From Muribaculaceae bacterium (lineage in GTDB: Bacteria; Bacteroidota; Bacteroidia; Bacteroidales; Muribaculaceae): a stretch of 64,000 nt of DNA. The number at the start of each line of letters is the position of its first letter. Within the stretch, counting starts at the first letter, position 1. Both the position numbers and the translations under genes were made by a program. A model generated the notes under the pieces. It saw only the letters and a program-made list of their open reading frames with translations, made no database searches and was not told where the DNA came from. Location: positions 1 to 64,000 of the forward strand of contig JAEETL010000001.1 in the NCBI GenBank assembly GCA_016290325.1. The letters run 5' to 3'. Below are positions 5,541-30,344 of this stretch, piece after piece.

Positions 5541-6434
5541 ATGAAACGAGAGCATGAAATATATAAGGTGACGCTTGTGGGCAGCGTGGGCAATGTCGTG
5601 CTGCTGACCTTCAAGTTCATCGCGGGCACGTTGGGCCACAGCTCGGCGATGATTGCCGACGCGGTGCACTCGCTGTCGGATTTTTTCACCGACCTGATCG
5701 TGCTGTTGTTTGTGAAAATCAGCGCCAAGCCACAAGACGAGTCCCACGACTATGGTCACGGCAAATTTGAGACGTTTGCCACGTTTTTTATCGGTCTGGC
5801 ATTGATTGCTGCAGCTACGGGCATCATCGTGTCGGGTGTATTGAAGTTTGTGGACTGGTTGGGCGGTGAGCAGCTTGAAGCGCCGAGCAAGTTGGCCTTG
5901 TGGGCGGCACTACTGTCCATCGTGGTCAAGGAGGGACTGTTCCGTTACACCATCCACTGCGGTAAATCGCTCGATTCCCAGGCGGTCATTGCCAACGCCT
6001 GGCATCATCGCAGTGACGCGCTCTCGTCGATAGGTGCAGCCATTGGCATCGGCGGTGCTATCCTATTGGGCGACCGTTGGACGGTGTTGGACCCCCTGGC
6101 CTCGATTGTTGTGGGCCTGATGCTGGTTAAGGTGGCCATTGACCTGCTCAAGAGCAGCGTCGGTGAGCTTACCGAGAGTTCACTCCCTGCTGAGACTGAA
6201 CGCGAGATAGAGGGAATTATCAAGTCTTTTCCCGGTGTGTTTGAGCCCCATAACCTGCGCACACGCCGTATTGGCGACCACATTGCTATCGAAACCCACG
6301 TGCGCATGGACGGCAGACTGCCCCTGGATGATGCCCACGAGCGCGCTACCGCCATTGAGCGCGAACTCAAACAACGGTTTGGCAGCGCTACCCATGTCAC
6401 CATCCACATGGAACCCACTAAAGACAAAGCATAA
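5541..6434 (+). CDS. Cation diffusion facilitator (CDF) family efflux transporter
   Basis: 297 aa. Six transmembrane segments carry the CDF metal-site signatures: DAVHSLSDFFTD in TM2, HDYGHGKFET after it, and HHRSDALSS in TM5, which give the paired Asp/His tetrahedral site. The C-terminal cytoplasmic domain (about 215-290) ends with IETHVRMD and VTIHMEP strands typical of the dimerising metallochaperone-like fold. The family exports Zn2+, Fe2+ or Mn2+ in exchange for protons; the metal cannot be fixed from sequence. The phzF-like gene follows after 20 bp, so the two are probably co-transcribed. Confidence 0.92.
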   Translation: MKREHEIYKVTLVGSVGNVVLLTFKFIAGTLGHSSAMIADAVHSLSDFFTDLIVLLFVKISAKPQDESHDYGHGKFETFATFFIGLALIAAATGIIVSGVLKFVDWLGGEQLEAPSKLALWAALLSIVVKEGLFRYTIHCGKSLDSQAVIANAWHHRSDALSSIGAAIGIGGAILLGDRWTVLDPLASIVVGLMLVKVAIDLLKSSVGELTESSLPAETEREIEGIIKSFPGVFEPHNLRTRRIGDHIAIETHVRMDGRLPLDDAHERATAIERELKQRFGSATHVTIHMEPTKDKA

Positions 6435-8335: not shown

Positions 8336-8452
8336 GCAAATATTTCCATACTGCCAATCCATGGTCCCATCGCCTGATGAAAAAAAGAGCGTATATCCTG
8401 AATAATGGTAAATAAAATGTGATAAAGTGGCGGATAAGTTGTAAAAAATACA

Positions 8453-8460
8453 TATATTTG
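8453..8460 (+). promoter_or_regulatory. -7 box TATATTTG upstream of the DUF4923 lipoprotein
   Basis: TATATTTG on the plus strand, followed by CCCCC and a 38-nt leader to the ATG at 8499. It overlaps the end of the rejected long form of the neighbouring gene. Confidence 0.6.
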
Positions 8461-8498
8461 CCCCCAGTAACGATTATTATTAACCAAAAATAGAAACA

Positions 8499-9194
8499 AT
8501 GAAAAAGATTTACATGTCAATTCTGGCAGCCGTGCTGCTTCTCGGTTCAGGTTGTACGACAGGCCTGTTGGAAGGCCTCGGAGGCTTGGGAGGAGATACT
8601 GGTAACGGCACTGGCCAGGGTGGCGGCTTGGGCGACATCCTGGGAGGTGTATTGGGCGGCGTTTTAGGCGGCCTGGGCGGTAACACGGTTGACGGACTGT
8701 TGGGATTGGTCATCGGCAGTGTGCAGGTTAACGAGAGCGAACTATATGGGGCATGGTGCTATTCAGGGCCAGGCTGCGCTTTCACTAGCGAGAACCTGCT
8801 GGCAAAGGCCGGTGGCGCGGTGGCTGCCGAGACTTGCAAGGAGAAGCTGTTGCCCGTTTATAACACATTGGGCATCAGTGCAAACAACACGCAATTCCAG
8901 TTCACTCAGGATCATCAGTTTTCCGCCTACGTCAAGGGTATTCCCTTGAGTGGCACCTATACCTATGATCCGACTAACGCGACCATCAAGATCAAGACAA
9001 TGTTGTTCAGTTCAAACGTCTATGTCACCCGCACGACCCGCGGACTTGCCTTCACCTTTGAGAGCAAGAACCTGTTGAAGGTGTTGCAGGCGGTAGCTGC
9101 TGTGAGCGGTAATACCACTTTGCAGACGGTTGGTGACTTGAGCAAGCAATTTGATGGTGTGCGCCTTGGTTTTGACATGGCCCCCATGAACTAG
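8499..9194 (+). CDS. DUF4923-family lipoprotein
   Basis: 231 aa. Signal peptide with lipobox LLGSGCTT (Cys about residue 19), then a low-complexity Gly/Leu-rich stretch (about 23-70, GGLGDILGGVLGGVLGG) that could insert in a membrane or form a flexible linker. A compact domain follows beginning ELYGAWCYSGPGCAFTSENL, with LLAKAGGAVAAETCKEKLLP and an LGISANNTQFQFTQDHQF strand pattern; this matches the Bacteroidetes DUF4923 family. Function unknown; presumably at the outer membrane. A terminator follows about 55 bp after the stop, so it is monocistronic. Confidence 0.85.
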   Translation: MKKIYMSILAAVLLLGSGCTTGLLEGLGGLGGDTGNGTGQGGGLGDILGGVLGGVLGGLGGNTVDGLLGLVIGSVQVNESELYGAWCYSGPGCAFTSENLLAKAGGAVAAETCKEKLLPVYNTLGISANNTQFQFTQDHQFSAYVKGIPLSGTYTYDPTNATIKIKTMLFSSNVYVTRTTRGLAFTFESKNLLKVLQAVAAVSGNTTLQTVGDLSKQFDGVRLGFDMAPMN

Positions 9195-9249
9195 CCTTTT
9201 GGGCTCATCACGGTTTGGCCAAGCGTCTTTCGGGACTCATTTATCTAAC

Positions 9250-9292
9250 AATCCCCTGCCGCAATCACCGCGGTAGGGGATTCTTCTTTTTT
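9250..9292 (+). terminator. Terminator after the DUF4923 gene
   Basis: 13-bp stem AATCCCCTGCCGC / GCGGTAGGGGATT with one G-T pair and a 7-nt loop, followed by CTTCTTTTTTG. Confidence 0.85.
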
Positions 9293-9375
9293 GATGCTGG
9301 TTTCTAGTGCTGAACTATACTAGTTGGCCCGCTGGGTAAAATAATCAACGGCTTTGAGCGTTATATCAATAGGGG

Positions 9376-11022
9376 ATGAAAAAAGTTTTGGTGGTCATAT
9401 TGCTGATGTTGGTGCTCGTGGCGGCGGTCACGGGCTGTGACGGGTTGCGCCGCTATGACGCGCGGCTCGTGGCGGCCGACAGCCTGATGCAGCCCGCCCC
9501 TGACAGCGCCCTGGCCATCGTGAGCGTCCTCGACAGCCTGGCAGGCGACGCCAACCTCGCTTACCGCGACCTGTTGCTCACCCAGGCTCGCTACAAATGC
9601 TATGCCGACATCACTGCCGGTGACGACAGCGCCATCACGAGCGCCATGACCTGGTACAGTGCCCACAGCGGCGAGCGCGAGAAGCTCACGCGCGCCTACC
9701 TCTACAAGGGGGCAGTGATGGAGGAGCTGGGCCACGTCGACAGCGCCATGTATTACTACAAGACCGCCGAAGTCACCGCCGACCCTAAGGACTACGCCAA
9801 CCTGGGACAAATCAATACTAGGATAGCAGACTTGTACAGAAAAAGCTATGGGGATGAGCAAACTTGTTATGAAAAGTATAATCAAGCATATCAATACCAT
9901 AGGCTTACAGGTAATAAAAAGATGCAGCTGAATAATCTATGCCGCATGTTTATGATGAATGGCATTACACATCTTAATGAGCAAGATACGCTTTTCAATA
10001 TGGCTTTAAACTTGGCCAATGAATTTGAGAATAATAATAAATTATGCTTTTTACTTGAGTTAAAATGTAGACAACTTTCACGTACGGATTCAACACAGCA
10101 AGTGGCCAAACATATTGCTTTGCACTGTTTAAATCATTACAACCAATATATTAACAACGATATGTTGATGGATTTGGCCTTTCTTTATGCTAAAGAGAAT
10201 AAGCTGGATTCTGCCATGTTTTTCCTAACAAATGTTGATGAGAAACTTGAACCCGATGATATAACACATATTTTAATTAGAAAAAATGAAATCCTCTCAA
10301 TCATCGCACAGCAAGCAGGGAATCAATCACTAAGTCATCAGTACACCGCAGCCTCCAGCCGTCTGAGCGACTCTATTTTGGACAATAGAGATAAATATGT
10401 TGTTGAGAGCATAGAAAATGAATTTAATCTACTCAAACACAAGCACAATCAGTCTAATCTTAACCGCCTCCAATGGGCAATTATAGGATTATCAATAGTG
10501 ACAATTGCAGTAATTGTTTTATTGACTATATTATATCTAAGCCGACTGCACCGCACTAAAAGCATCATCAAGAATCTGGAAGAAGTGAACACCGAGAATT
10601 ATGAAAAAATGCTTAATAGACTAGAAGACAAGAATGGTATAATTGAACGGTTGCTCTCCAATCTTGTTGCACTCATTAGATTATCCTCCAAGAACGGGGT
10701 ACGTGGCTCAACATCCCAGGTGGCTCAGCAAATCAAGGAGACCATCGTGGATGTGGCCAATGATGATTTTTGGAACGAGCTGAGAGCTTATTTGGACAAA
10801 AAGCATCATGGCATCATCTCAAACCTTGAACAGACTTATCATTTAAAAGAAAAAGACCTGAGATTTATTGAACTCTCGTGCTGTGGATTTTCCTATGTTG
10901 TCATGGCTATCATACTGGACTATTCTCCTAACTATGTGCTTAATAAACGCAAAATCTTAGCCAGCAAAATGGGGCTGAACATGTCTCTACAGGAATACCT
11001 GGAACATTTAATAATGGAATAG
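9376..11022 (+). CDS. Lipoprotein-anchored TPR sensor with TM segment and cytoplasmic LuxR-like HTH (regulator 1)
   Basis: 548 aa. Lipobox-type signal AAVTGCDG (Cys about 21), then TPR-like helical repeats across about 25-340, a transmembrane helix at about 363-388, a coiled coil (about 393-425) and a C-terminal helix-turn-helix (about 490-535, LKEKDLRFIELSCCGFSYVV). The layout suggests a one-component membrane regulator sensing outside and binding DNA inside. A paralogue lies at 28459-30144, and both are followed by a small secreted protein gene. Composition is mosaic: line 9421-9480 is 77% GC by hand count, line 9841-9900 is 32%, and the switch falls near base 9800 inside the gene. This suggests recombination onto a conserved 5' end. 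Having both a lipobox and a TM helix is unusual; the lipobox may simply mark a signal anchor. Confidence 0.8.
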   Translation: MKKVLVVILLMLVLVAAVTGCDGLRRYDARLVAADSLMQPAPDSALAIVSVLDSLAGDANLAYRDLLLTQARYKCYADITAGDDSAITSAMTWYSAHSGEREKLTRAYLYKGAVMEELGHVDSAMYYYKTAEVTADPKDYANLGQINTRIADLYRKSYGDEQTCYEKYNQAYQYHRLTGNKKMQLNNLCRMFMMNGITHLNEQDTLFNMALNLANEFENNNKLCFLLELKCRQLSRTDSTQQVAKHIALHCLNHYNQYINNDMLMDLAFLYAKENKLDSAMFFLTNVDEKLEPDDITHILIRKNEILSIIAQQAGNQSLSHQYTAASSRLSDSILDNRDKYVVESIENEFNLLKHKHNQSNLNRLQWAIIGLSIVTIAVIVLLTILYLSRLHRTKSIIKNLEEVNTENYEKMLNRLEDKNGIIERLLSNLVALIRLSSKNGVRGSTSQVAQQIKETIVDVANDDFWNELRAYLDKKHHGIISNLEQTYHLKEKDLRFIELSCCGFSYVVMAIILDYSPNYVLNKRKILASKMGLNMSLQEYLEHLIME

Positions 11023-11100
11023 AGCAGGAAAGCGCGCTACAGAAAACAATAGTTTTTCGATTCACATTTTTCTCCCAAAATTCACATTTGGCCCCAAAAT

Positions 11101-11122
11101 ACACCTTGTAGGTGTGTTTTTT
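11101..11122 (+). terminator. Small hairpin with T-run after regulator 1
   Basis: ACACCT-TGT-AGGTGT followed by GTTTTTTG. The 6-bp stem is short, so this could be a weak terminator between regulator 1 and the downstream small gene. Confidence 0.5.
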
Positions 11123-11225
11123 GTCTTTTTTTTGCCCTATAGAAATGCAATAACGTGTATAATGGTTTGATTTTTAATTAATTGTAGAATGTGAACGATG
11201 TGAATAATTAACATTGATTTCATTA

Positions 11226-11257
11226 TTTGTCACATAAAAAATATCACTATATTTTTG
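11226..11257 (+). promoter_or_regulatory. Full -33/-7 promoter of the 115-aa secreted protein gene
   Basis: TTTG at 11226-11229 and TATTTTTG at 11250-11257 with a 20-bp spacer, the textbook Bacteroidetes arrangement. Transcription would start near 11264, giving a roughly 28-nt leader. The gene therefore has its own promoter and does not depend on read-through from regulator 1. Confidence 0.75.
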
Positions 11258-11291
11258 CAGGAAAAAGTAGAATAAACTAATTCCTTATATT

Positions 11292-11639
11292 ATGATGAAA
11301 CACTTAATTACTTTTTTATTGTTTTCTTTTTTTAGTCTATACGCCTTTAGTGCACCAGAAAAGATTGTGTTGAGTAACCAAGGTGCTGGGGTAATAGATG
11401 ATCGCTCACATCCATTGTACTTTGAAATGCCTGACGCTTTTTATAATCATGATGTTAAGACGCAGGATATTATTATTGACGGTGGAGGGGTTGTGAGTTA
11501 CTATGACGTGGAGATTTCGTCGCCGGTGACCAACACTGTCGAGATGTCCACCCATGTTAGCGGGACGTATGACACTTTTGACATCTCGTCGCTTCCCGCG
11601 GGCTCGCATGTCATCATCGGTAAAGCCCTCCACTTATAA
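11292..11639 (+). CDS. Small secreted beta-sandwich protein (DUF3244-like), paired with regulator 1
   Basis: 115 aa with a signal peptide ending near AFSAPEK. The mature protein has an alternating beta-strand pattern (TQDIIIDGGGVVSYYDVEI, then TFDISSLPAGSHVIIG), resembling the Ig-like DUF3244 group. The paralogue at 27811-28260 shows the same order (AESQEIIANGLKDRINYAV, then NVSFLDAGKYKIIL). This copy stops right after the GSHVII strand, so it appears to lack the last strand of the fold. The 5' part is AT-rich (line 11401-11460 35% GC) and the 3' part is not (line 11521-11580 55%), marking the right edge of the foreign-looking block that began in regulator 1. Function unknown. Confidence 0.65.
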   Translation: MMKHLITFLLFSFFSLYAFSAPEKIVLSNQGAGVIDDRSHPLYFEMPDAFYNHDVKTQDIIIDGGGVVSYYDVEISSPVTNTVEMSTHVSGTYDTFDISSLPAGSHVIIGKALHL

Positions 11640-11694
11640 TAAATAATAAATAATCATTAATTATTTAATTATCAATATTTTAATATTTACAATT

Positions 11695-13230
11695 ATGAAA
11701 AAGATTTTTATTTTATCAATTTTAGCGCTATATGGAATAACTCAGTCGGTCGCCCAAAATAATGAATACATCCCTTTTGTGCGTGAAAACGTGAAATGGG
11801 TATGCTCTTCAAAGAAACTTCCAATAAATAATTATACGATTGAGCATTTCTTCACCTTGGAGTTCAAGGGAGAAGCCGTCTTCAATGACAAAACCTACAA
11901 GGCGATGCACATGTATAGTGGTGAAGATATCGACCCGAACAACGACACCATCCCTGTGTATATGCGAGAGGAGGGCAAGGTGGTTTATGCCATCGTGCCC
12001 GACGGCAAGACCTACGAGGATTGCCCGATTGACTGTTTAAATGATAGTACGATTGCAGAGGACATCAGGGCAGGCAGGGAATTTGTCCTGTATGACTTCA
12101 ACGACCCTGAAGGGTTTATCATGAGCAAGATCCCCCAAAACCCCTATGTCATTCACCAGGTGAAACCCCAGACGATTATGGTAGGAGACCGGAGCGTAAC
12201 GCGTTATGTGTTTCAAACCCGGATAATGTATGGCGCCTGCTTTATTGAGGGCATCGGATGTGACGGGTTGGTTCAAGGTTATCCGCTGGCTTTCCCATCC
12301 GACCGAAAATCCAGTCAGTATCAAATGCATTTGAGCCATGTCATCGAGAACGGAAAGGTTATCTATAGGTCTGAACATTACAACGTTAGGGAAGACGACG
12401 TCCCACCACTCATCCGCGAGGGTGTGCAGTGGGTGAACGAGCGCGTTATCATTGAGCACGGTGACACGACAAGATGCTATTATACCTATGAATTCAAAGA
12501 CGAGAATAACTGGGCATGGAAGCTTTGCCATTACTATGAAGGGGATTCGTTTGACAGTGAGCAGGACAGCGTGATAGCAGCGATCAGGGATTGTTATGGT
12601 GGGGTCAATTTCCAGTATAACAAAGCCATCTTAGATTTATACAAGAACAGCCCAGAACGGCTAATGATGCATTGGAATAATACACTTTACGCTTTTATCC
12701 CGTACGAATATTTTGAGTCGGTACTGAGTGGCGACAATCCGATTATGTACTTTAACCAGTTGCAGTTGGGAGAAGACTTGACCCTTGAGAACTTCGTGGA
12801 AGTGGAGCCAGTCTGGATTGAAGGCTACAAATGTAAACGCTATGCCTATTACGGCGATGGGGATAAGCCTCTATGCTATGTGGTTGAGGGCATCGGCTTT
12901 GACAGCCGCGACATGGGCGACCTGTTGACGCCCTTCACCCGCAAGCCCGATTCCGATGCCGACTACCAGGAGTACTGGGGCCTGAGCCACGTCATCAAGG
13001 ACGGCCAGATCATCTACAAGGGCATGCGCTACAAGGAGCCCGCAGCGATCGTTGGTGACGTGAACGGCGACGGCAAACTCACCATCGCCGACGTGACGGC
13101 GCTCATCGACATACTGCTGGGTAGCGGTGGCGCCGACAGCTTCAACATGCCGGGCGACATCAACATGGACAACCGCTTGAGCATCGCTGACGTGACAGCG
13201 CTCATCGACATGCTGCTCATTCAGCAGTAA
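11695..13230 (+). CDS. Large secreted protein with two duplicated halves and a C-terminal dockerin dyad
   Basis: 511 aa. A signal peptide (about 1-20) precedes two related halves. One begins YIPFVRENVKWVC and includes TLEFKGEAVFNDKTYKAMHM; the other begins LIREGVQWVNE and includes YTYEFKDENNWAWKLCHY. Each half ends in a shared GIGCDGL / GIGFDSR and LSHVI(E/K)(N/D)G motif. The C-terminus has two calcium-binding dockerin-type repeats (GDVNGDGKLTIADVTALIDI and GDINMDNRLSIADVTALIDM). I do not recognise the body. The first 150 bp are AT-rich, the rest is typical of the genome. It follows the small secreted protein gene by 55 bp and may share its promoter. Confidence 0.75.
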   Translation: MKKIFILSILALYGITQSVAQNNEYIPFVRENVKWVCSSKKLPINNYTIEHFFTLEFKGEAVFNDKTYKAMHMYSGEDIDPNNDTIPVYMREEGKVVYAIVPDGKTYEDCPIDCLNDSTIAEDIRAGREFVLYDFNDPEGFIMSKIPQNPYVIHQVKPQTIMVGDRSVTRYVFQTRIMYGACFIEGIGCDGLVQGYPLAFPSDRKSSQYQMHLSHVIENGKVIYRSEHYNVREDDVPPLIREGVQWVNERVIIEHGDTTRCYYTYEFKDENNWAWKLCHYYEGDSFDSEQDSVIAAIRDCYGGVNFQYNKAILDLYKNSPERLMMHWNNTLYAFIPYEYFESVLSGDNPIMYFNQLQLGEDLTLENFVEVEPVWIEGYKCKRYAYYGDGDKPLCYVVEGIGFDSRDMGDLLTPFTRKPDSDADYQEYWGLSHVIKDGQIIYKGMRYKEPAAIVGDVNGDGKLTIADVTALIDILLGSGGADSFNMPGDINMDNRLSIADVTALIDMLLIQQ

Positions 13231-13380
13231 GCGAGGAAAAACGGGCCATGGTGAGCGGCGGCGTGAGCCGCTGTGGAGGAAAGGCCCCCTCATTATATCT
13301 CTTCTTCGCCCGAAGAAGGTAAAGGATGATTTGCTCCAATAGTGCTCTTTAGGAGTATAATTAAATTCATCACGACCTGC

Positions 13381-13413
13381 GCTGCCCGCCATCATCACCC
13401 TCCGGCGGGCAGC
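13381..13413. terminator. Perfect 10-bp hairpin downstream of the dockerin protein gene
   Basis: GCTGCCCGCC / GGCGGGCAGC with a 13-nt loop. Only a weak T-run follows (TTGCATTG), so it may be a repeat-type hairpin rather than a true terminator. Confidence 0.4.
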
Positions 13414-13537
13414 TTGCATTGTGCCCCACACTTCCATCCCCGCGAACATTTTTCAAACGCGAATGACGCGAATTAACGCGATTTTTCATTTATAAATCAG
13501 TAAAAATCAGCGTAATCATTATAAAAATTGTTTTTGT

Positions 13538-13570
13538 TGTCCTTCTTGTCTTCCAACCTAAAACCTTAGC
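13538..13570. repeat. Dispersed intergenic repeat, copy 1 (partner 44232-44270)
   Basis: Shares TGTCCTTCTTGTC and CTTGTCTTCCAACC followed by AAAACCTT with 44232-44270, where an extra 9-bp stretch sits in the middle. Both copies are followed by related TAGCG/TCGCG text. Confidence 0.6.
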
Positions 13571-13630
13571 GGCTTAGCGCGGGGTTGGGAGCGGCCACGC
13601 CAAGGCGAGGCCCTACAGAGCGGATGCCTC

Positions 13631-13661
13631 CCTAACGCCTAAAACCTGGCGCCTCTAACCT
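13631..13661. repeat. Imperfect 7-bp-period repeat
   Basis: CCTAACG CCTAAAA CCTGGCG CCTCTAA CC: four degenerate 7-mers upstream of the VTC gene, of the same type as the intercistronic repeats listed elsewhere. Confidence 0.5.
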
Positions 13662-13742
13662 TTTTTGTTGATGGAAAGCATTAATTTGTTGAATTTTACG
13701 TTATAAATGTACGATGAAAGCTAAAGATTGCGTTTAAATGCC

Positions 13743-28458: not shown

Positions 28459-30144
28459 TCAGGACTCATTTTGAGAATTAGCATACTGATTGATGTACTC
28501 GTTGAGGGTGCAGTCGAGACCCATTTTCTTGGCGAGTCGCTGCTTGATGACGCTCACGCTGGTGGCGTTAGAGTATCCCATGATGATGGCCGTTTGGATA
28601 TAGGAGAAGCCCATGCAAGTCAATGCCAGCAGCAAGAGGTCTCGGTCGTTGAGCTGCGGGTAGCGCTGGCGAGTGAGGGTCATGATATTGTTGTGCTCCA
28701 GGTCGATGTAGTCATAGAGTTTCACCCAGTTGTCACGGTTGCTGTCCTGGAATTTGACGATGCGCTTCATGCTCTCGGCGATGCGGTTGTTGGGTTCGTG
28801 ATAGCAAGCCTCGATCATCTCTCTCATCATGCCCATGTTGGACGCGATAAACCCTTTTAGCCTTTCGTCATTGATTTTCAGCTCGCTGATGTTGCCTTGA
28901 AGTCCGGTGAGGTCATTCATTTGGCTCTGTGACTGGTCTTTAAGCTCAAGAACCAGTTTATCATACCGGTGGGAGCGGCGATAGAATATCAAGGCCAATG
29001 CCAGTAGGGAGAGGATAACGGCGGCTGCGGTGGCATACATCCTGCGTTGTTTGGCTTCTTCTTCCTGGGCATGAGCCTGATCAATTTGATTCTCGGCATA
29101 CATGATGTTTAAGATGCCGTGATCGTTCATGGTTGATCGGGTGAGCTTGTTGCACTCGTAGTACAGCCGCAAGTAGGTGCTGGAATCGCCTTTAGCAATC
29201 GCAATGTTGCTCAAAGCCTCAAGGTGTTGAATCCTGTCTTTAGGTGATTGTTCTTGAGTGTCAGCCAATTGCAAGAAATACTTTGCCGAGTCGGGCATAC
29301 CTAAGGCAGAGTAGATATTGGCAAATCGATAATACATGATATTGCTGTGTGAGCCATGCAACCCGTTAGGATCGAGCGTTTTAATGCGCTGCAATAGTTG
29401 ATAGGCCGTCTTGTTGCTGTGACGCATGAAATAAAGCTGGGCCATCTCGCCAAGTCCTGTAATCAAATAGCTCGTGTCCTTTTCAGCCTCGGAAAGAGAA
29501 ATAGATTCGCTGAGGGCTTTTTTTGCCTTAATGGTATCGGTTTGGCGGTAATTTGCTCCTAACTTATTTTGGGTAACGATTTGATAATTAGTGTCGTTGA
29601 TGAGCTTGAAACACTGTAAGGCCTGTTCAAACTTTTCAATATCCCTGCCGTCATAGGCATAGAAATTATTGTACAGGACACCCATGCGCAATCGTGCGTA
29701 GCCCACGTTAAAGATGTCTTTTTTCTCAAGTGCCTCGATCTCAGCTTGTTTATAGGAGAGCATTGCAGTGTCGGGCTTGTTCAGTTCCTCCATTACCGCA
29801 CCGTGATATATATAAGCACGGATGAGCTTATCCTTCTCCCTGCTATGGTGCTGGTAATAATCTAGGGCACGATTGATATTGCTATCACTGGTGGCTTTGA
29901 TATAGCACTTGTAGTAGGCTTGAGTGATGAGCAGTCTGTAATAGGCTTTATTAGCCTCATTCACCATGTCGCTAGGGTTGATATCCTTTAGCATCTGGAG
30001 GGCTTTATCGCTGTTTTCGTTGTCATTAAGCAGTGAATCGGCCAACGCTAGACGGTTGTCATAGCGTGGCGCACCACTGCAACTGGCAAGAAGCCCTGTC
30101 AGTAAGCACGTGACCAATAATATGTTGATCAGCGTTCTCATCAT
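28459..30144 (-). CDS. Lipoprotein-anchored TPR sensor with TM segment and cytoplasmic LuxR-like HTH (regulator 2)
   Basis: 561 aa from MMRTLINILL. Lipobox GLLASCSG, TPR-like helices over about 25-365, TM helix (about 373-391, YATAAAVILSLLALALIFY), coiled coil and C-terminal HTH (about 495-545: LNDRDLLLLALTCMGFSYIQ). It is homologous to regulator 1: RYDNRLALADSL, YYRLLITQAYYKCYI and AYIYHGAVMEELNKPDTAM align with RYDARLVAADSL, YRDLLLTQARYKCYA and AYLYKGAVMEELGHVDSAM. An upstream in-frame ATG at 30180 is rejected because a -7 box lies between. Predicted one-component membrane regulator; its ligand and targets are unknown, though the neighbouring secreted protein gene is the obvious candidate target. 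Confidence 0.8.
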   Translation of the reverse strand: MMRTLINILLVTCLLTGLLASCSGAPRYDNRLALADSLLNDNENSDKALQMLKDINPSDMVNEANKAYYRLLITQAYYKCYIKATSDSNINRALDYYQHHSREKDKLIRAYIYHGAVMEELNKPDTAMLSYKQAEIEALEKKDIFNVGYARLRMGVLYNNFYAYDGRDIEKFEQALQCFKLINDTNYQIVTQNKLGANYRQTDTIKAKKALSESISLSEAEKDTSYLITGLGEMAQLYFMRHSNKTAYQLLQRIKTLDPNGLHGSHSNIMYYRFANIYSALGMPDSAKYFLQLADTQEQSPKDRIQHLEALSNIAIAKGDSSTYLRLYYECNKLTRSTMNDHGILNIMYAENQIDQAHAQEEEAKQRRMYATAAAVILSLLALALIFYRRSHRYDKLVLELKDQSQSQMNDLTGLQGNISELKINDERLKGFIASNMGMMREMIEACYHEPNNRIAESMKRIVKFQDSNRDNWVKLYDYIDLEHNNIMTLTRQRYPQLNDRDLLLLALTCMGFSYIQTAIIMGYSNATSVSVIKQRLAKKMGLDCTLNEYINQYANSQNES

Positions 30145-30152
30145 CCGGATTG

Positions 30153-30160
30153 CAAAGATA
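30153..30160 (-). promoter_or_regulatory. -7 box TATCTTTG just upstream of regulator 2
   Basis: Minus-strand TATCTTTG only 8 bp before the ATG at 30144, implying a nearly leaderless mRNA. It sits inside the longer ORF and therefore decides the start. Confidence 0.55.
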
Positions 30161-30344
30161 GTATATTTTTTTCTTTGCAATAGTTTTTTGCCATATTTTT
30201 AATAAGGTGTAATTTTTTTTAGCCGAAAAAAGTGAGATTGTCATTTATTTTGCAAAAAATGCCCATTTTTTAGCGGATTTTTTGCTTTTTTTGCCGTATT
30301 ATTTCGTTAGATGCCTGTATTACAACGTATTGTGAGAATATCTA

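What the first reader, a model, noticed from the sequence alone, without database searches (positions are those of the whole stretch)
9790..11500. AT-rich block starts inside regulator 1 and ends inside its partner gene
Hand counts: 77% GC in 9421-9480, 32% in 9841-9900, 35% in 11401-11460, 55% in 11521-11580. The low-GC block covers most of the sensor, TM, HTH, the intergenic promoter and the N-terminal half of the secreted protein. The ends fall in conserved parts of both genes. This looks like homologous recombination that swapped the whole regulator-partner specificity cassette between conserved flanks, and it would keep the two proteins matched.
Basis: partly seen in the sequence, partly recalled or inferred. 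Interest (0 to 1): 0.72.

Follow-up and report, generated by a model that had tools for sequence, protein, structure and literature searches.

The report
Swappable sensor cassettes between shared handles
In a group of gut bacteria, many of them from ruminants, a family of membrane-bound gene switches keeps its front end, and the end of a neighbouring secreted protein, alike within each genome, while what lies between (sensor, DNA-binding part, promoter, start of the partner protein) is often unrelated from copy to copy, which looks like a way of rewiring what the cell senses to what it puts on its surface.

Summary
But it is not the scar of one swap here: the same GC-rich start and AT-rich remainder occur in 58 of 67 intact family members from related Bacteroidales. 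The conserved flanks are real: a 5' handle (about -40 to codon 153 of a TPR-TM-HTH regulator) and a 3' handle (second half of a DUF3244-like secreted protein). Both are alike within each genome (median 0.87 and 0.90 between paralogues); the regulator middle is not (0.395). Handle and middle have incompatible trees. Replacement of the middle at one chromosomal site is seen between species. The gene pair resembles BT_3442/BT_3441 of Bacteroides; my searches found no description of the handle-and-cassette organisation. Ligand-receptor matching is inferred. New variant of a known kind (modular exchange, like Rhs tips or pherotype loci).

The parts
9335..9836 (+). 5' handle: ribosome-binding region and codons 1-153 of the regulator; GC-rich, homogenised among paralogues
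   Evidence: 86.7% DNA identity to C8-A and 89.6% to L126 over this stretch; within-genome paralogue median 0.866
9376..11022 (+). Regulator gene (548 aa): lipobox-like signal, periplasmic TPR solenoid, one TM helix, cytoplasmic coiled coil and HTH
   Evidence: ORF; model with helices 29-335 (TPR-like), a long helix 338-403 and a helical C-terminal domain 463-547, mean pLDDT 79; TPR structures found by Foldseek; weak NarL HTH match E 0.068; topology inferred
9436..9438 (+). Cys21 codon of the lipobox-like VTGC, suggesting an N-terminal lipid anchor
   Evidence: Cys21 invariant in the 26 rows of alignment A4; lipobox rule recalled
9837..11022 (+). Variable part of the regulator (codons 154-548)
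   Evidence: median nucleotide identity 0.395 within and 0.378 between genomes
10474..10539 (+). Predicted transmembrane helix (approximate)
   Evidence: hydrophobic run read from the translation, inside the long helix 338-403 of the model
10762..11016 (+). C-terminal HTH-type domain
   Evidence: model helices 463-547; weak NarL profile match
11226..11257 (+). Bacteroidales-type promoter TTTG-N20-TATTTTTG ahead of the small gene, inside the cassette
   Evidence: pattern present in 35 of 52 cassette intergenic regions against 0.9 expected from shuffles; consensus recalled
11061..11204 (.). Four TTCACAT/ATGTGAA half-sites (11061, 11081, 11189, 11198), candidate operator
   Evidence: at least two TTCACA/TGTGAA in 4 of 12 other window-type cassettes and 0 of 30 of other type, window excluded; motif chosen after seeing the window
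11292..11639 (+). Small secreted DUF3244-like protein (115 aa)
   Evidence: ORF; 22 of 33 aligned small proteins match PF11589 at E up to 1, best 1.4e-6, but the window protein itself does not
11292..11410 (+). Variable first part of the small protein, last piece of the cassette
   Evidence: N-half identity 0.581 within and 0.494 between genomes
11411..11639 (+). 3' handle: conserved second half of the small protein
   Evidence: homology to C8-B starts at 11411; C-half identity 0.895 within and 0.605 between genomes
11695..13230 (+). Downstream effector-type gene: 511-aa secreted protein with a C-terminal dockerin-like end
   Evidence: Dockerin_1 E 8.2e-6; 74-81% DNA identity to stretches of the C8-A and C8-B copies

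Best explanation
The window holds one member of a multi-copy family of regulator-partner cassettes in a genus of gut Bacteroidales. Shown by sequence: copies have a 5' handle (about 500 bp, start of the regulator) and, where the small gene is present, a 3' handle (about 230 bp, second half of a DUF3244-like secreted protein); the handles of copies in one genome are kept alike (concerted evolution), while the part between them belongs to one of many types found across species, and at the same chromosomal site it can be replaced as a unit. Inferred: the handles are kept alike by RecA-type gene conversion between paralogous loci, and double crossover or conversion spanning both handles moves the whole middle between loci and between species. 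Because the middle carries the periplasmic sensor, the HTH, a promoter (and probably its operator) and the first half of the partner protein, a swap exchanges a complete input module while the downstream surface or secreted effector can stay, so the cell is rewired without mismatching the parts. Inferred, weaker: the small protein, or what it binds, is the signal read by the variable TPR sensor in the periplasm.
For: Within-genome median identity: 5' handle 0.866 (43 pairs), variable 0.395 (43), small N-half 0.581 (20), small C-half 0.895 (20); between genomes 0.705, 0.378, 0.494, 0.605. Nearest neighbour comes from the same genome for 28 of 51 handles but 5 of 51 variable parts (shuffled mean 1.2, maximum 8, in both). 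Handle and variable trees reject each other (AU p 1.75e-5 and 1.4e-44); of 12 genomes with two or more copies in the trees, 8 form a clade in the handle tree and 1 in the variable tree (30 of 68 intact loci, chosen by genome). Replacement at one site: L137 against L157 (upstream 0.93-0.95, handle 0.89-0.91, nothing, then 0.77-0.82, then 0.97-1.00 over the next kilobase), while the same two species keep the L152/L155 variable part at 0.99-1.00. L113/L114 are identical right up to both breakpoints. Variable sensor distance correlates with the small N-half (Mantel r 0.37, p 0.001) but not with the small C-half (-0.02) or 5' handle (0.05) (35 cassettes). Promoter pattern inside 35 of 52 cassettes.
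Against: The comparison genomes are drafts, mostly metagenome-assembled by their titles; near-identical handles could cause misjoins, and 18 of 36 downstream contig ends seen fall within 1.5 kb of the regulator. At the window's own site no swap of the middle is seen. Outside this genus, in G190, five paralogues show no homogenised front end (0.22-0.63 aa), though three of them are more alike at the front (0.40-0.48) than further on (0.15-0.31). Of 12 same-site pairs with values, 2 keep the cassette, 3 are intermediate and 7 are unrelated (pairs picked by hand). The 5' handle also correlates with the small N-half (r 0.295, p 0.006). A small gene was found behind only 52 of 85 regulators (some contigs end before it). 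Nothing here tests binding or signalling.
Confidence: 0.75

Rival explanations
1. A single recent event put a foreign AT-rich regulator-partner block between the conserved flanks of this locus.
For: Sharp GC step; no DNA match to the block elsewhere in its own genome; both homology edges lie in conserved parts; such events are seen at other loci.
Against: The composition switch is shared by 58 of 67 intact family members. The same-site relative L127 has the same cassette type at 54% aa, and it is the 5' flank that matches the paralogue.
Confidence: 0.08
2. No recombination: the front end and the small-protein end are under strong purifying selection, the middle diversifies fast, and GC follows selection.
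For: The front end is also the most conserved part of the protein. In 8 of 10 distant relatives third-position GC of the first 150 codons exceeds that of the next 150.
Against: Species-specific but internally uniform handles (JAFZRJ: 42-44% aa to the window, 88-97% nt among the four of its copies with values; CAMJJG: 99-100%) with middles at 0.37-0.67; mutually rejecting trees.
Confidence: 0.06
3. Recent whole-gene duplication followed by targeted hypermutation of the middle (retroelement-like diversification).
For: Handles can be 97-100% identical in one genome.
Against: The middles differ at about 60% of aligned nucleotides and group into types shared across species, not scattered point changes.
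Confidence: 0.03
4. Site-specific recombinase shuffling (shufflon type) instead of homologous recombination.
For: Front-block matches tend to end at the same place (median base 449 of the ORF, quartiles 422 and 486; borders).
Against: Handles show graded identity over hundreds of bases, not a short identical site. I made no search for recombinase genes.
Confidence: 0.08

Closest known systems
BT_3442-BT_3441 cluster of Bacteroides thetaiotaomicron (PMC2954219, passages read)
   Same: TPR-containing BT_3442 lies next to BT_3441, a homologue of structure 3d33 (a DUF3244 protein), in a cluster of mostly lipoprotein effectors; the NCBIfam BT3442 model matches the window regulator along residues 1-420 (E 2.2e-14).
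   Different: Score 53 against a cut-off of 940; the passages read describe internal duplications in that cluster but no shared handles, variable middle or exchange between loci; effectors there include MACPF proteins.
Rhs genes and C-terminal tip displacement (PMC2935791, passages read, abstract in part)
   Same: Conserved core and variable C-terminus evolve separately, homologous recombination is proposed to replace the tip, and core fragments show as GC peaks.
   Different: Dissociated tips accumulate downstream in Rhs; here there are two handles and a regulator instead of an Rhs protein. I did not search for displaced modules downstream.
ComQXPA pherotypes of Bacillus subtilis (PMC4408185, passages read) and agr groups (recalled)
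   Same: Signal and receptor genes are polymorphic together, so specificity changes as a unit.
   Different: Alleles of one locus with a known signal (recalled); here several loci per genome, concerted handles, DNA-binding domain and promoter inside the cassette, no proven signal.
Campylobacter jejuni Tlp2/Tlp3/Tlp4 receptors (PMC9769880, passages read)
   Same: Paralogous sensors with identical signalling domains and dissimilar sensor domains; the trees of the two parts differ.
   Different: The shared part is the output domain; here the shared part is the N-terminal start and the HTH output domain varies. No second handle in a linked partner is mentioned in the passages read.

Membership tests
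BT3442 family (NCBIfam NF053779) | score over the curated cut-off of 940 bits | tested here: not met
   53.1 bits, E 2.2e-14; 4 of 26 aligned regulators match at E up to 0.1, best 1.3e-22; 0 of 119 genomes of the order over cut-off, 1 of 14 control genomes over it
BT3442 family (NCBIfam NF053779) | TPR protein next to a DUF3244-like small protein (gene order, from PMC2954219) | tested here: met
   window order; small gene found behind 52 of 85 regulators; DUF3244-like ORF behind 6 of 10 distant relatives looked at, judged by eye
DUF3244 (PF11589) | profile match | tested here: inconclusive
   22 of 33 aligned small proteins match at E up to 1, best 1.4e-6; the window protein does not; no match in its own genome at E 0.001
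DUF3244 (PF11589) | Ig-like beta sandwich | tested here: inconclusive
   Foldseek ranks the DUF3244 structures 4g5a, 3sd2 and 3d33 high (probability 0.90-0.99) but at E 0.03-0.15 and TM 0.36-0.54, mixed with fibronectin-type domains; model pTM 0.53
Pherotype cassette (comQXPA/agr type) | receptor and secreted partner vary together between conserved flanks | tested here: met
Pherotype cassette (comQXPA/agr type) | the partner is the signal that activates its own receptor only | not testable with these tools
   needs binding and reporter assays
Pherotype cassette (comQXPA/agr type) | alleles of a single locus | tested here: not met
   several copies per genome, for example five in G021 and four in JAFQZK
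Rhs tip displacement | core and tip have separate histories | tested here: met
   AU tests
Rhs tip displacement | protein is an Rhs repeat protein | tested here: not met
   no Rhs family among the Pfam families shown for 10 members (25 of 34 families shown); TPR fold

The most novel reading that the evidence does not exclude
A multi-locus specificity-swapping system: a genome carries several copies of a membrane one-component regulator whose sensor, DNA-binding domain, operator and cognate secreted partner form one exchangeable module bounded by two homogenised handles. Modules travel between loci and species, so the repertoire of signals (perhaps self-made DUF3244-like signals) is re-assigned to different surface effectors, a combinatorial analogue of pherotypes.
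Probability: 0.35. Interest if true: 0.8.

Novelty: new variant of a known kind. Interest (0 to 1): 0.62.

Why it matters
Exchange of variable modules between conserved handles is known for Rhs proteins, pili and quorum-sensing alleles (the last two partly recalled). Here it involves whole regulatory modules (input domain, DNA-binding domain, promoter and partner) spread over several loci, which would let bacteria rewire gene control by ordinary homologous recombination. It also gives natural pairs (same site, same flanks, different module) to test what DUF3244-like proteins and the TPR-TM-HTH regulators of Bacteroidales do; I found no functional study of either in the searches made.

Tried and rejected
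GC-biased gene conversion as the cause of the GC-rich handle: handle third-position GC rises with its best identity to another handle (Spearman 0.69, 68 loci, not corrected for relatedness), but polarised third-position changes in 16 independent within-genome pairs gave 28 W-to-S at 348 W sites and 115 S-to-W at 2960 S sites, an equilibrium GC3 of 0.67, close to the ORF mean of 0.66 in the window. A present GC bias is therefore not supported (parsimony with skewed composition pushes this estimate down). The GC-rich handle stays unexplained.

Antisense gene over the handle (ORF 9361-9900 on the minus strand): I take it for a by-product of GC-rich third positions; not tested. Rfam: no match in 8400-13700 at gathering thresholds. 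Solved structures by sequence for the small protein: best E 0.03, unrelated proteins. HTH-operator co-variation: the TTCACA motif, taken from the window, is found twice or more in a minority of the same type and in none of the others (the type threshold was 38% aa and 33%); other types gave no motif I would trust. Search for the handle system in G190 of another family: no homogenisation (a first version, stopped with an error).

Literature: seven searches aimed at this organisation or its genes and three at analogues, all in the open-licence library, turned up no description of it in their listings; subscription papers and preprints were not covered. Of PMC10434189 I saw passages only; they list DUF3244 and TPR genes in an expression table.

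Full report
What is there. The window lies in contig C68 of a 2.93 Mb draft genome. Related loci come from records titled Muribaculaceae, Prevotellaceae, Porphyromonadaceae or Bacteroidales; many titles name ruminants (buffalo, goat, sheep, roe deer, water deer) or RUG isolates (rumen, recalled). At 9376-11022 is a 548-aa regulator with a lipobox-like Cys21, a TPR solenoid, one TM helix near 10474-10539 and a C-terminal HTH-type domain. At 11292-11639 is a small secreted protein; 22 of 33 aligned small proteins of this kind match DUF3244, the window protein itself does not. At 11695-13230 is a 511-aa secreted protein with a dockerin-like end.

The composition switch belongs to the family. In 58 of 67 intact loci, the window included, the first 140-odd codons exceed the rest by more than 0.10 in GC (L155, a near-copy of L152, left out). 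Over the 68 intact loci mean third-position GC is 0.81 in the front block and 0.46 in the rest of the regulator; where the small gene was aligned it is 0.375 in its first and 0.65 in its second half, with intergenic GC 0.29. Loci were gathered by similarity to the front block, so this is no census of all such regulators, and the block limits were set after seeing the first alignments.

Two handles with their own history. Among paralogues in one genome the front block has median identity 0.866 and the second half of the small protein 0.895, while the regulator middle has 0.395 and the first half of the small protein 0.581 (43 and 20 pairs). Between genomes the values are 0.705, 0.605, 0.378 and 0.494. 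In CAMJJG the front blocks are 99-100% identical with middles at 0.53-0.65. In JAFZRJ the front block is a remote variant (42-44% aa to the window), yet 88-97% identical among its own copies. Not all genomes do this: L167/L179 share only 0.65 at the front, L128/L181 0.63, and C8-B of the window's genome 0.57-0.58. The closest front block comes from the same genome in 28 of 51 loci that have a paralogue, the closest middle in 5 of 51 (shuffled mean 1.2, maximum 8). Trees on 30 of 68 intact loci (chosen by genome; L155, L171, L174, L186 and L017 left out by hand) exclude each other; of 12 genomes with two or more copies, 8 form a clade in the handle tree (not JAFQZK and ONGE, which interleave, nor G000, mixed with ONKD, nor JAFRRT) and 1 in the variable tree. 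Point mutation after duplication cannot leave one end nearly identical and the rest at the noise level; recombination is required.

Replacement at one site. L113 and L114 (two species) share 1614 bp upstream at 96.9% and the front block at 94.8%, then nothing up to the second half of the small protein, where 123 bp are 95.9% identical up to a contig end. Bases beside both breakpoints are identical. The upstream intergenic stretch of this pair also differs. L137 and L157 show both flanks, though L157 has only 314 bp upstream: 0.93-0.95 upstream, 0.89-0.91 in the handle, no homology from about regulator base 440 to the small protein's middle, then 0.77-0.82, then 0.97-1.00 over about a kilobase, and 0.66-0.93 further on; the same two species keep another variable part (L152/L155) at 0.99-1.00. 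Of 16 same-site pairs picked by hand, 12 had values: variable part at least 0.98 aa in 2, 0.38-0.43 in 3, 0.15-0.24 in 7. The flank evidence for L143/L162 is the weakest of these (two upstream genes at unequal offsets). L016/L149 have a mixed profile: handle mostly 0.89-0.93, variable part 0.94-1.00, upstream flank 0.79-0.99.

The window's own locus. Behind the same upstream gene (DUF4923), genome G021 has L127. Its variable part is 54% identical in protein to the window's; the other G021 copies reach 40, 43, 42 and 27%. The front block, however, is 0.87 identical between the window and its own paralogue C8-A, 0.87-0.88 between L127 and three of its four own paralogues (0.79 for the fourth, L091), and 0.75 between window and L127. 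So the visible recombination here concerns the flank, not the block. L149 of the related ONKD genome is as close to the window's front block (0.89) as C8-A is, so the conversion may predate that split. The window's second handle and downstream gene match another own-genome cassette, C8-B, at 80.5% from 11411 to 13413.

The middle as a module. Distances of the variable sensor correlate with those of the small protein's first half (Mantel r 0.37, p 0.001), not with its second half (-0.02) or the front block (0.05); the front block also correlates with the first half (0.295, p 0.006) (35 cassettes). Linkage alone would give this, so it shows travel as a unit, not binding. A Bacteroidales promoter pattern (recalled) lies between the genes in 35 of 52 cassettes, 0.9 expected; in the window at 11226-11257. 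Four TTCACAT half-sites lie ahead of it. Among the other cassettes at least two half-sites occur in 4 of 12 of the window's type and 0 of 30 of other types (Fisher p 0.004); the motif was picked from the window afterwards, and 8 of 12 of the same type do not reach two.

Mechanism. I take gene conversion between paralogous handles as the source of their likeness, and exchange across both handles as the way a module moves. The first is strongly indicated by the pattern; the second rests on same-site replacements in draft genomes. Contig ends cluster at these loci (18 of 36 downstream ends within 1.5 kb, p 0.0017; 9 of 17 upstream, p 0.03, 79 loci), as expected of repeats or of mixed strains, and this is also the main caveat. 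What the sensor reads is unknown; the cassette-specific half of the small protein is the best candidate.

Known relatives. The pair TPR protein plus DUF3244-type protein is recorded for BT_3442/BT_3441 in B. thetaiotaomicron (PMC2954219, passages) and occurs in other genomes of the order (6 of 10 loci looked at, by eye), without homogenised front ends in the one genome tested. The process is most like Rhs tip displacement (PMC2935791, passages), pherotype polymorphism (PMC4408185, passages) and paralogous chemoreceptors with one shared domain (PMC9769880, passages). The listings of the searches named under Tried and rejected did not show the arrangement itself.

Noticed in passing
window 13243-13413: About 170 bp behind the dockerin-protein gene are 95% identical behind C8-A and 92% in L126: a possible small dispersed repeat.
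   Followed up: no
L127 about 6016-6386: The front block of the window's same-site relative lacks 28 bases in the alignment and its ORF starts inside the block; L140, L176, L187 and L191 also have ORFs that start inside the block. Pseudogenes, errors or something regulated: not resolved.
   Followed up: partly
L016 3919-5757 (minus strand): In cassette C8-A no separate small gene was found; the downstream secreted protein itself ends in a stretch like the small protein's second half.
   Followed up: no
window 11695-13230: The dockerin-protein gene has the second largest within-gene third-position GC step of the window (0.34 at codon 397), so it may be a mosaic too.
   Followed up: no
L017 4676-6370 (minus strand): Cassette C8-B has its regulator divergent from the small gene, with ordinary GC (0.53) and a front block only 0.57-0.58 identical to those of the other two copies compared.
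   Followed up: partly
window 28459-30180 (minus strand): A second regulator of the same general type (30% identity) without the composition switch.
   Followed up: no
regulator front block, 48 loci with a close match: Third-position GC of 0.85 in front blocks that have a match of 0.80 or more remains unexplained; polarised substitutions do not point that way.
   Followed up: yes
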